A stretch of 64,000 nt of DNA from Deferribacter autotrophicus (lineage in GTDB: Bacteria > Chrysiogenota > Deferribacteres > Deferribacterales > Deferribacteraceae). The stretch lies in contig NZ_VFJB01000006.1 in the NCBI RefSeq assembly GCF_008362905.1, positions 124,001-188,000 of the forward strand, read 5' to 3'. The notes under the pieces were generated by a model, which saw only the letters and a list, made by a program, of their open reading frames with translations, was not told the DNA's origin and searched no databases. The position numbers and the translations under genes were made by a program. Shown one piece after another: positions 28,757 through 31,851 of this stretch (positions are counted from its first letter, which is position 1; the number at the start of each line of letters is the position of its first letter).

Positions 28757-31534
28757 TTATTTTTTCAAAAGATTTTTTATAACCTTAAGTAACTCTTTGG
28801 CATCAAAAGGTTTTTTGAAAAAGGGGTAATTTTTATCGAAAATTTCTTTTATTAGTTTGGATTCGTCAGACCCTGAAATAAAAATGATTGGCATTTCAGG
28901 TTTTAATGTTAAAAACTTTTTTGCTAAATCAATGCCATTTTTGTCATATAAAAAAATATCTATTATTGCTAGCTCAATATTGTTACTAGTAAATTTAATT
29001 AAAGCATCGTTATAACTGTTTGATGTCATAATATCATACAGTTCACGATCTAAAATAATTTTTGCTGAATCAAGTATAGAATCCTCATCATCTACTAATA
29101 ATATTGTTTTCTTGGTTTTATCTCTTTTTGATTGTATAGACAAATCGCTTACTAAATTGTAGGTATGCATAATTGTGGGGAGATAGATTTTAAAGGTTGT
29201 ACCTTTACCCACCTCAGATTCTGCAGTTATTGTGCCACCATGTTTTTTTATTATACCATAGCTGGTAGCTAAACCAAGGCCTGTTCCTCCACCAGCTTTT
29301 TTTGTGGTATAGAATGGTTCAAAAATTTTGGGTAAATCCTTTTCCGCAATTCCGACACCAGTATCAGATATAGATAGCTCGATATATGCACCGGGGTTTA
29401 GTTCAGGATTAAAGAGGCTACTGTATTCATCAATAACTTTACAATTTGCTGTAATCTGAAAAACTCCTCCATTTGGCATCGCATCTTTTGCATTTGCTGT
29501 GAGATTTAAAATAACTTGAGTCATCTGGATTGGATCACCCTCAAAAGCAGGCAAATTTGAAGGGATATCTATGATCAAAGAGATGTTTTCTCCAAGTGTG
29601 CTTTTAATTAATGGAACAGTATCATTTATTAATTTTTTAATGTTTAAAATTTTGATATCTGATTTAGATTCTCTACTAAATTCTAATAGCTTATTTATTA
29701 ACTGTGCAGATTTATTTGAAGATTCATGGATTATTTTTGCTGATTTTTTTAGCTGTTCTGGCAGATCTTTATTTTTTAAAAGATAGGATGATAATGTAAC
29801 AATTGGAGTTAACATGTTGTTGAGTTCGTGAGCTATACCGGCAGTAAAATATGCAATACTTCTTAGTTTTTCAGTATTTATTATCTGAAATTCAAAATTT
29901 TTATAAAGAGTTATGTCATATAGAAAACTATACACATGTGTAAGATTACCATCTTTATCAAATCTACCAACAGCATTTTCTAAAACGATAGTTTCATTAC
30001 CTTCTTTATCGATATAAGTCATTTCGATGTTTTTTACCGTTTTCTTTTCCTTTAAAATTTTTAGAAATAGTTCTCGCTGTTTTCTATCTTTATAGAAATT
30101 TGAAGCGTTAATCGTTTTGAGTTCATTTTTATCTTTATATTTAAAGAGATTTAAGAATGCTTGATTACAGTCGATAAAATCTCCTTTAGGTGTGGTAATA
30201 CAAATTGCAGCAAGATTTTCTTCTAAAAATTTTTCAAAATCTTCAGATAAATTTGATAATTTCATAGATTGTTCTAATCTGTAGAACGTGCTTGCTATAA
30301 GGTTTGATATTTCACTTAGGATTATACGTTCAAATTCTTCGAGTTTTCTATCCCAAGCATTTATGTTTAAGATTATGTATCCATAAAAATTATTGAGATA
30401 CTGAATTTTGGATGAAAAAGTAAGGCTTCCATGTTGTAAGTTTAAATATGGGCAGGTTTTGCATGTCTTATTGTTATGATGATCATTTAAGACGATATAA
30501 TTTTGATTATGCAATGCGTTGATACATTCTGGTAACCCTTTTTCAAGATTTTTTGCAAATAGTGTTTCATCATCCTTTGTAAAACCGTAAGTTATAAAGT
30601 CACTGATTTCTTTATTATTATCAAGTAAAACGATAGAAAAACATTTTATATCATTATATTTTGAAAGAAGATTTGCCGTTTCTGATAAAATTAATTCTTT
30701 AGATTGTAATAGTTTGAGATTTTTATTAAGTTCATGCAAGATAAACAGCAAATTGAGATGGTTTTGAAGCTTTTTTTTAGCAGATTTCTCTTCGTGGATA
30801 TCAATGGCAGTTATTAACCCTGCATGTTTACCGTTGTAAGTTGTAACTCGTCCTTCCAGTAAAACCCATCTCTTTTTTCCATCTTTTCTTTTTACAAGTA
30901 TTTCATATTTGTTTTCAGGGTCATACCCTTCTTGTCGCTTTCTACCCCGTTTTTTTACAATTTCTTGAAAATTATCATCTACTAACTCCCAGAATTTCAT
31001 CCCAACAATTTCATTTTTTGAATAACCAGTAATTTTAGTGGCTGCAGGATTTGCGAAGATTATAATGTCATCTTGATAAAAGATAATTGCAACAGAGGTT
31101 TTTTCATAAAGGTCTCTAAAAATTTGATTTCTTTCTTCTAACTGAATTTGAATTTTCTTTTTATCCGTGATATCTTTTATGGTAATTAATACGTTATCAA
31201 TAGTTTTTTTGTTAATAATTATAGGAGTTGAGGTGATCTGTAGATATTTTGTTTTTCCATTAAATGGAACTTTCAATTCATTATCGCTAGATTTTCCTGT
31301 AATAATAACTTCTTTAGCTGGACATTTTGATACATTTTGGCAAATATTGTGAAATTCTTTTTTGTTATCAAAGCATTTATTGCCCTCGATAAAACCTTTT
31401 TCTTTTGCTTTGTGATTTGCAAATAAGATGGTAAGATCTTTGTTTACTGAAAAAACGATGTCTGGTAGATTATCTAAGATTTTTTTAAAAAAAAACGCAT
31501 CTGCTCTCATATATAATTCTAAAGTATTTTCCAT
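28757..31534 (-). CDS. Hybrid sensor histidine kinase (PAS-PAS-GAF-PAS-HisKA-HATPase-REC)
   Basis: Soluble 925-aa kinase without TM segment. PAS1 (about 10-115) has three Cys (GNKCFD, HNICQN, SKCPAK); PAS2 is about 125-245; a GAF-like domain about 265-415 contains TCKTCPYL; PAS3 about 430-550. HisKA has the phospho-His in TAGIAHELNNML, the ATPase domain has the N box NLTANAKDAM and GTGLGLATSYG, and the C-terminal receiver has VDDED with acceptor Asp in IDIFLYDKNG. It has no cognate response regulator next to it. Cys pairs suggest redox, metal or FeS sensing (inference). The start is ATG 31534; the Shine-Dalgarno is weak. A foldback element begins 26 nt upstream. Confidence 0.92.
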   Translation of the reverse strand: MENTLELYMRADAFFFKKILDNLPDIVFSVNKDLTILFANHKAKEKGFIEGNKCFDNKKEFHNICQNVSKCPAKEVIITGKSSDNELKVPFNGKTKYLQITSTPIIINKKTIDNVLITIKDITDKKKIQIQLEERNQIFRDLYEKTSVAIIFYQDDIIIFANPAATKITGYSKNEIVGMKFWELVDDNFQEIVKKRGRKRQEGYDPENKYEILVKRKDGKKRWVLLEGRVTTYNGKHAGLITAIDIHEEKSAKKKLQNHLNLLFILHELNKNLKLLQSKELILSETANLLSKYNDIKCFSIVLLDNNKEISDFITYGFTKDDETLFAKNLEKGLPECINALHNQNYIVLNDHHNNKTCKTCPYLNLQHGSLTFSSKIQYLNNFYGYIILNINAWDRKLEEFERIILSEISNLIASTFYRLEQSMKLSNLSEDFEKFLEENLAAICITTPKGDFIDCNQAFLNLFKYKDKNELKTINASNFYKDRKQRELFLKILKEKKTVKNIEMTYIDKEGNETIVLENAVGRFDKDGNLTHVYSFLYDITLYKNFEFQIINTEKLRSIAYFTAGIAHELNNMLTPIVTLSSYLLKNKDLPEQLKKSAKIIHESSNKSAQLINKLLEFSRESKSDIKILNIKKLINDTVPLIKSTLGENISLIIDIPSNLPAFEGDPIQMTQVILNLTANAKDAMPNGGVFQITANCKVIDEYSSLFNPELNPGAYIELSISDTGVGIAEKDLPKIFEPFYTTKKAGGGTGLGLATSYGIIKKHGGTITAESEVGKGTTFKIYLPTIMHTYNLVSDLSIQSKRDKTKKTILLVDDEDSILDSAKIILDRELYDIMTSNSYNDALIKFTSNNIELAIIDIFLYDKNGIDLAKKFLTLKPEMPIIFISGSDESKLIKEIFDKNYPFFKKPFDAKELLKVIKNLLKK

Positions 31535-31559
31535 TTAAGTTCAATTTAATTTGAGGTTT

Positions 31560-31788
31560 TGGAGTCACCCCTATTTTTTAAGAATAGTAATATTATGAGT
31601 ATTATTAGTAGATTACACACTAAATACAGTGGAAAATATTTTTCTCATTCTCGTGGCACGTCCAGTGCCACTTGCGAGGCAGGTTTCTCAAAAATCGCCA
31701 TCCATGGCGATTTTTTGGAAACCTAAACCCGAAAAATATTTTCCAATGTATTATAAAATATTATTTTTTAAATTTTGGGGTGACTCCA
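31560..31788. mobile_element. Foldback/MITE-like element, 229 bp
   Basis: Perfect 12-bp terminal inverted repeats TGGAGTCACCCC (31560-31571) and GGGGTGACTCCA (31777-31788). Inside are 20-bp arms with one mismatch (31625-31644 and 31731-31750), a 7-bp hairpin GTGGCAC/GTGCCAC (31653-31671) and a 21-bp near-perfect hairpin with a 2-nt loop (31681-31724). It encodes no transposase. No clear target-site duplication is visible. The inside is richer in G+C than the flanks. It separates the kinase gene from the pheA promoter and may carry regulatory or terminator activity. A structured RNA is the alternative. Confidence 0.65.
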
Positions 31789-31822
31789 GAATTTGAAGTT
31801 GTTTTTAAGGGTTAAATAAGGG

Positions 31823-31851
31823 TTGAATATTTTTTAACTCTGATTTATATT
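31823..31851 (+). promoter_or_regulatory. Predicted leaderless promoter of the aromatic operon
   Basis: TTGAAT (31823-31828) and TATATT (31846-31851) are spaced by 17 nt. The pheA ATG begins at 31858, seven bases after the -10 box, which is where transcription would start. No Shine-Dalgarno precedes this ATG. Together these suggest a leaderless mRNA. Confidence 0.55.

What the first reader, a model, noticed from the sequence alone, without database searches (positions are those of the whole stretch)
31560..31788. 229-bp foldback (MITE-like) element between a kinase gene and the aromatic operon
Seen: 12-bp perfect terminal inverted repeats, 20-bp inner arms with one mismatch, and two further hairpins, one with a 21-bp near-perfect stem. 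It could fold into a branched cruciform in DNA or RNA. It has no transposase and could be a non-autonomous element. It sits where it could carry the kinase promoter and insulate the pheA promoter. Copies elsewhere would define a family, possibly undescribed.
Basis: partly seen in the sequence, partly recalled or inferred. Interest (0 to 1): 0.6.

Follow-up and report, generated by a model that had tools for sequence, protein, structure and literature searches.

The report
Replication-oriented foldback MITE targeted by IS110
The 229-bp hairpin is one of about 44 copies of a non-coding mobile element in the deep-sea bacterium Deferribacter autotrophicus; nearly all copies point the way DNA is replicated, and a second, RNA-guided mobile element carries a guide RNA that matches their hairpin and keeps inserting into it.

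Summary
The window lies in Deferribacter autotrophicus. About 44 copies of the 130-nt core occur there, most inside ~235-bp elements with 13-bp terminal repeats (CTGGMGTCACCCC) and 8-11-bp target duplications. A same-ended autonomous IS with an IS4-type transposase exists in another family of the order; no relative of that transposase is in this genome.

Four things go beyond the guess. (1) The core is a three-helix structure kept by compensatory changes (27 of 50 pairs). (2) An identical 1,272-bp IS110 element sits in eight copies at the same base, although the hosts are as little as 69% alike; its predicted bridge RNA matches that site, and a sister IS110 with different guides sits in a different, matching repeat. 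(3) The asymmetric core points in the replication direction in 39 of 42 copies (p = 6e-9), independently of transcription. (4) One ancient copy in the etf operon predates the split from D. desulfuricans; its core is 93% conserved, flanking genes 81.5%.

Promoter or insulator roles are not supported: the pheA promoter lies outside the element and is conserved without it. Mobility is well supported; the cause of the polarity is open.

The parts
31548..31558 (.). left target-site duplication AATTTGAGGTT (imperfect, 10/11)
31560..31571 (+). left terminal inverted repeat TGGAGTCACCCC (family TIR is 13 bp with an outer C; here T at 31559)
31623..31752 (+). structured core (covariance model R1 match): basal helix of 21 pairs enclosing two hairpins; + strand lies in the replication (G-rich) direction
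31624..31644 (+). left arm of basal helix (pairs with 31731-31752)
31644..31652 (+). IS110 target motif CTCAT^TCTC (insertion after the AT at 31647-31648); unoccupied in this copy
31649..31679 (+). hairpin 1 (TCTCG-TGGCAC..GTGCCA-TGCGAG), covarying upper stem
31680..31725 (+). hairpin 2 (21-nt near-perfect stem, covarying)
31725..31726 (+). point at which a ~100-bp second miniature element (TTCAGGGTGTTGCAC..ACACCCTGAA) is nested in at least five other copies; empty here
31777..31788 (-). right terminal inverted repeat GGGGTGACTCCA (followed by family G at 31789)
31790..31800 (.). right target-site duplication AATTTGAAGTT
31823..31851 (+). pheA promoter-like site TTGAAT-N17-TATATT, outside the element, conserved in D. 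desulfuricans (context, not part of the element)

Best explanation
The element is a member of a multicopy, non-autonomous (MITE) family that was spread by a DDE transposase recognising 13-bp ends CTGGMGTCACCCC and making 8-11-bp target duplications (shown: ends, duplications, copy number; inferred: the transposase, which is absent from this genome but whose same-ended relative with an IS4-type transposase is present elsewhere in the order). Its asymmetric interior is a ~130-nt branched foldback core conserved in structure. Because the core points in the replication direction in 39 of 42 copies, insertion or retention is coupled to the replication fork; I favour fork- or clamp-oriented insertion, as reported for several IS families, over selection after insertion (inferred). 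The core now serves as a safe intergenic landing site for IS110 elements whose predicted bridge RNA is complementary to the base of hairpin 1 (shown: identical insertion point in at least nine copies and guide match; inferred: RNA-guided insertion). In the window copy no regulatory role is indicated.
For: MITE: ~44 CM hits in the genome, DNA hits at 70-93% identity, TIR pattern 54 vs 0 in control, duplications of >=8 bp in 23 of 31 copies against a mean of 0.8 after shuffling flanks, copies lie between genes. Autonomous relative: a 1,473-bp IS in G010, six copies, ends CTGGCGTCACCCC..GGGGTGACGCTAG, 8-11-bp duplications, 439-aa DDE_Tnp_1 transposase with the IS4 YREK signature. IS110: eight 1,272-bp copies 100% identical inside hosts 69-99.6% alike, always at CTCAT^TCTC; upstream ncRNA folds at z -6.6 with a target loop ACAUUUUUCUCAU..GAGAAUG; sister ISy has loop GUCAU..UCGCAAUG and sits at GTCAT^TGCGAG repeats, 3 of 3. 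Polarity: 39/42, p = 5.6e-9, 11/11 in convergent or divergent gene contexts.
Against: No transposase with these ends was found in this genome or in D. desulfuricans, so the mobilising enzyme is inferred. The autonomous IS copies in relatives show only a weak, non-significant polarity (15/23, p = 0.21), so fork-directed insertion is not demonstrated for this transposase. The window copy's own duplication has one mismatch. Bridge RNA expression was not tested.
Confidence: 0.85

Rival explanations
1. A structured RNA (or ssDNA) element with a cellular function that was carried along by a MITE: the core is kept by selection on its fold, as at the etf operon, and the mobile ends only spread it.
For: 27 of 50 pairs with double changes, covariation score 0.453 vs 0.188 shuffled, 95.6% of cells paired. 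At etf the core is 139/150 identical between two species, flanking genes about 81.5%, and the rest of the spacer is gapped. Three of four helical differences between the two species are C-G/U-G changes, which keep pairing in + strand RNA. All three copies against the polarity have damaged or interrupted cores.
Against: Only two species and one orthologous copy; no homologue in 44 other genomes of the order. Double changes could come from palindrome correction by template switching. Fold energy is equal on both strands as RNA and as DNA. The window copy lies between divergent genes.
Confidence: 0.25
2. The core is spread as single-stranded DNA by an HUH/Y1 transposase (IS200/IS605 or REP type), which would explain the replication polarity.
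For: Replication polarity 39/42 is what IS200/IS605 elements show (PMC5371812); hairpins with conserved unpaired motifs.
Against: The copies have 13-bp TIRs and 8-11-bp duplications, which ssDNA transposition does not make; the core-only copies give no independent boundary. No HUH transposase with matching hairpins was looked for.
Confidence: 0.06
3. Orientation is selected through transcription: copies are kept in sense with neighbouring genes.
For: 28 sense against 4 antisense copies among co-directional neighbours, p = 1.9e-5.
Against: 75% of genes lie on the leading strand. In convergent and divergent contexts, where transcription predicts nothing, 11 of 11 follow replication, and 3 of 4 antisense copies also follow replication.
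Confidence: 0.05
4. The window copy is a cis-regulator (kinase promoter, pheA insulator or terminator).
For: It sits between divergent genes and contains strong hairpins.
Against: Both promoter-like sites lie outside it; the pheA promoter is conserved in D. desulfuricans, where no copy is present upstream; copies lack a conserved promoter.
Confidence: 0.05

Closest known systems
Bacterial MITEs derived from DDE insertion sequences (IS4-type ends)
   Same: Short, non-coding, TIRs, target duplications, multicopy, intergenic, no own transposase.
   Different: Long asymmetric core conserved by compensatory changes; core aligned with replication in 39/42 copies; autonomous parent missing from the genome; one ancient copy with its core preserved in an operon.
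REP/BIME/REPIN elements and their use as targets by IS110 elements (IS621, ISPpu9, ISPpu10, ISPa11; PMC1525189, PMC11208160, PMC11187229)
   Same: Intergenic palindromic repeats that serve as a fixed landing site for IS110-type elements, with guide RNA matching the repeat.
   Different: The repeat here is a 230-bp TIR element with target duplications rather than a 20-40-nt REP spread by a HUH enzyme; the insertion point is at the junction between the basal helix and hairpin 1.
IS110-family bridge RNA (IS621)
   Same: DEDD recombinase, ncRNA in the 5' region, target loop with left and right guides overlapping a core dinucleotide, donor loop matching the element's ends.
   Different: AT core instead of CT, long right guide (~8 nt); two sister elements in one genome programmed for two different repeat families. 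RNA and recombination not tested.
Replication-oriented insertion (Tn7 TnsE; IS200/IS605; several IS families, reviewed in PMC5371812)
   Same: Orientation follows replication direction.
   Different: Here the symmetric-ended MITE is oriented through its interior; the related autonomous IS shows no significant bias (15/23).

Membership tests
MITE (non-autonomous TIR element) | terminal inverted repeats shared by copies | tested here: met
   54 pattern matches vs 0 control; 13-bp TIR in aligned copies
MITE (non-autonomous TIR element) | target-site duplications of fixed length | tested here: met
   8-11 bp, >=8 bp in 23/31 copies vs mean 0.8 shuffled; imperfect in the window copy
MITE (non-autonomous TIR element) | multicopy, short, no coding capacity | tested here: met
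   about 44 copies, ~235 bp, no ORF of 80 aa or more within the window copy
MITE (non-autonomous TIR element) | autonomous element with the same ends | tested here: met
   in another family of the order (G010), not in this genome
IS4 family (as source of the ends) | DDE transposase with Y-(2)-R-(3)-E-(6)-K signature | tested here: met
   YFKRWKVEESFRFMK in the G010 transposase; Pfam DDE_Tnp_1 E=2.5e-14
IS4 family (as source of the ends) | score above the curated IS4 family cut-off | tested here: not met
   NCBIfam IS4_2 66 bits against a cut-off of 152; so only called IS4-like
IS110 family (the element inserted in the MITE) | DEDD + Transposase_20 recombinase | tested here: met
   Pfam and NCBIfam transpos_IS110 199.8 bits, cut-off 140
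IS110 family (the element inserted in the MITE) | 5' ncRNA with target and donor loops complementary to target and ends | tested here: met
   sequence and fold only; RNA itself not tested
REP/REPIN (HUH-mobilised) | no TIR or target duplication; HUH (RAYT) partner | tested here: not met
   TIRs and duplications present; RAYT partner not searched
Known Rfam RNA family | match at gathering threshold | tested here: not met
   best match RNAI 23.6 bits, threshold 47
cis-acting structured RNA | conserved secondary structure with covariation | tested here: met
cis-acting structured RNA | expression and effect on the adjacent gene | not testable with these tools
   needs RNA-seq or reporter assays

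The most novel reading that the evidence does not exclude
The core is a replication-polar functional structure (single-stranded DNA or RNA) that the cell or the element needs in one orientation relative to the fork. A symmetric-ended MITE has spread it, damaged copies lose the polarity constraint, one copy has been domesticated in the etf operon, and IS110 elements have evolved guide RNAs to exploit it.
Probability: 0.2. Interest if true: 0.75.

Novelty: new variant of a known kind. Interest (0 to 1): 0.52.

Why it matters
It gives one genome in which three questions can be tested: how a symmetric-ended MITE becomes oriented with the replication fork (39 of 42 copies), whether compensatory change in a mobile hairpin reflects selection or palindrome repair, and how IS110 bridge RNAs are naturally reprogrammed to new repeat families (two sister elements, two different repeats, guides matching each). 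It also shows a MITE copy inside a metabolic operon whose core outlasted its ends and is more conserved than the neighbouring genes.

Tried and rejected
Structured-RNA family in Rfam: nothing above threshold. Plasmid collection by distant blastn: no match. Autonomous partner in the own genome near unpaired TIRs: only host genes, no transposase, and no homologue of the G010 transposase, with that search positive in eight other genomes. The 1.5-kb TIR elements first looked like the autonomous form, but they are MITEs interrupted by IS110. Idea that sense orientation reflects transcription: strong at first (28:4), then explained by replication direction. Promoter or terminator content: nothing conserved; fold energy is not strand-asymmetric. 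Idea that the last base of the right guide co-varies with host subfamily: dropped, because the contig-end copy does not fit. G-U versus A-C counts as a strand test: not decisive apart from fixed positions. Idea that the etf copy is a pre-MITE ancestral leader: rejected, since other genera have the two genes nearly abutting, so it is an old insertion. Scan of genome contigs for the exact guide sequence: none, own genome excluded. IS4-like orientation as the cause of the polarity: 15/23, not significant. The paper on clamp-dependent IS orientation cited in PMC5371812 was not held.

Full report
WHERE IT IS. The window is contig C6:124001-188000 of a 2.54-Mb, 10-contig genome. The contig count and the length of contig C1 (319,692) match Deferribacter autotrophicus in the table of PMC13186404, and the only congeneric genome held has the chromosome length of D. 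desulfuricans, 2,234,389. The table's total length is 8.6 kb larger than the assembly held, so the identification is near-certain rather than proven. G010 (2,526,590 bp) is, from memory of genome size, Flexistipes sinusarabici.

THE OBSERVATION. The element lies between a minus-strand histidine kinase gene (28757-31534) and the plus-strand pheA operon.

A MOBILE FAMILY. A DNA search of the genome found dozens of copies at 70-93% identity; the covariance model of the core finds 44 distinct places. The ends are a 13-bp inverted repeat CTGGMGTCACCCC followed by an A/T run, and the end pattern is present 54 times against 0 for a control pattern. Immediately outside the 13-bp ends, 23 of 31 copies have an exact duplication of at least 8 bp, mostly 8-11 bp, against 0.8 when flanks are shuffled. 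Elements with the same ends but quite different interiors also exist (C4:215576-215828, C4:274785-274975, C4:20992-21294, C3:317576-318031), so the ends are the unit of mobility and the interior is passenger.

THE ENZYME. No relative of the candidate transposase is in this genome or in D. desulfuricans, although the same search is positive in eight other genomes of the order. In G010, six copies of a 1,473-bp IS have the same ends (CTGGCGTCACCCCATTTT..AAAATGGGGTGACGCTAG), 8-11-bp duplications, and a 439-residue DDE transposase carrying the YREK signature of IS4. It scores below the curated IS4 cut-offs, so I call it IS4-like. Two or three MITEs with these ends and other interiors occur in G010 and G003. 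That a lost member of this group spread the family is an inference.

THE CORE. Inside the ends lies a ~130-nt core: a basal helix of 21 pairs enclosing two hairpins joined by conserved unpaired motifs (CTCAT, GAACCCG). Across 27 distinct copies, 27 of 50 pairs have changes on both sides, 95.6% of cells pair, and the covariation score is 0.453 against 0.188 in shuffles and at most 0.127 when slid. At least seven distinct basal arms are each matched by a changed partner arm. Because copies are related and arms of a palindrome can correct each other by template switching, this shows that the structure is maintained, not by itself that RNA is selected. Fold energies of the two strands are equal, as RNA and as DNA.

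AN OLD COPY IN THE etf OPERON. One copy without recognisable ends lies between an Fe-S oxidoreductase gene and an etfB-like gene in both D. autotrophicus and D. desulfuricans. In the nine other genomes of the order with this gene pair the two genes nearly abut, so a ~235-bp element inserted before the two species split. Since then its ends have decayed, but its core is 139/150 identical while flanking genes are about 81.5%, which argues for purifying selection on the core at this site. It is the only copy in D. desulfuricans, and none was found in 44 other genomes of the order.

IS110 LANDING SITE. Eight copies are interrupted by a 1,272-bp IS110-family element, identical to the last base in all eight, while the host MITEs are 69-99.6% alike. 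A ninth host carries an 82%-identical relative (L109), and a tenth, split between the end of contig C9 and the start of C4, carries a third. The insertion point is always CTCAT^TCTC, at the foot of hairpin 1. Upstream of the recombinase gene is a stable ncRNA (z -6.6) whose target loop reads ACAUUUUUCUCAU...UUGAGAAUG, matching the left target and complementary to the right target, with a donor loop containing ACGGAACAU and UGCGAUG matching the element's own ends (ACGGAAC-AT, AT-CGTA). This is the architecture described for IS621 (PMC11208160). A sister element, 65% identical in DNA, has three identical copies, all in a different repeat at GTCAT^TGCGAG, and its loop reads GAUUGUCAU...UUCGCAAUG. 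Guides and target repeat thus change together. IS110 elements that target palindromic repeats are known (PMC1525189) and natural guide changes are known (PMC11187229); the pairing with this MITE is new to the records searched here.

ORIENTATION. The core is asymmetric, so each copy has a direction. Relative to co-directional neighbours it is sense 28 times and antisense 4 times. This is not transcription: third-position GC skew over 20 kb, which has the same sign for genes on both strands, matches the core's strand in 39 of 42 copies (p = 5.6e-9). All 11 copies in convergent or divergent contexts and 3 of 4 antisense copies follow replication; within contig C3 the core orientation flips together with the skew. 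The three exceptions all have damaged or interrupted cores (C9:128205 lacks hairpin 2, C3:32311 is disrupted, C9:106868 holds an IS110), but interrupted cores are common, so this is only suggestive. Autonomous IS4-like copies in three relatives show 15 of 23 (p = 0.21), so the polarity is not a clear property of this transposase group. Replication-oriented insertion through the sliding clamp is reported for several IS families (PMC5371812) and is the simplest explanation; selection against reversed intact cores is the rival. Gene calls behind the sense/antisense count are longest-ORF calls made in a script, not a gene finder; the skew test does not depend on them strongly because genes on both strands give the same sign.

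THE WINDOW COPY. It is empty of IS110 and of the nested ~100-bp element. The pheA promoter-like site at 31823-31851 lies outside it and is conserved in D. desulfuricans, where the upstream gene differs and no copy is present. No promoter is conserved among copies. I see no evidence that this copy regulates either neighbour.

CONFIDENCE. Mobile non-autonomous family: about 0.95. IS4-like enzyme as the mobiliser: about 0.8. IS110 insertion guided by the bridge RNA: about 0.9. Polarity with replication as a fact: about 0.95; its cause by fork-directed insertion about 0.5, by selection about 0.35. Core selected for function at etf: about 0.6.

Noticed in passing
L111, L112, L113 (G000 C9:6070-7286, C3:264013-265224, C1:200691-201902): A second IS110-family element, three copies, inserted at GTCAT^TGCGAG in widespread GTCATTGCGAG..GAAGCAATCT palindromes, with a target loop matching that repeat.
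   Followed up: partly
L054:2227-2329; also L009, L027, L148, L034 and the end of contig C9: A ~100-bp second miniature element (TTCAGGGTGTTGCACA..TGTGCTACACCCTGAA) is nested at the same point and in the same orientation of the MITE core in about six copies; its mobiliser is unknown.
   Followed up: no
end of contig C9 (259133) and start of contig C4: The assembly break is flanked by the two halves of a MITE carrying an IS110 relative, with matching flanks, so the two contigs are probably adjacent.
   Followed up: partly
L088:663-1928: Next to one copy of the 1,473-bp IS in G010 lies a second, 41%-identical transposase gene; this second IS type has about eight copies in that genome.
   Followed up: no
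L150 (JAASTO010000152.1): A 6.5-kb contig labelled Balneolaceae MAG encodes a 92%-identical copy of the IS4-like transposase; either recent transfer or a mis-binned contig.
   Followed up: no
L153:2653-3040: Upstream of pheA in D. desulfuricans there is a cluster of the same GTCATTGCGAG palindromes and a different upstream gene, so this intergenic region collects repeats in both species.
   Followed up: no
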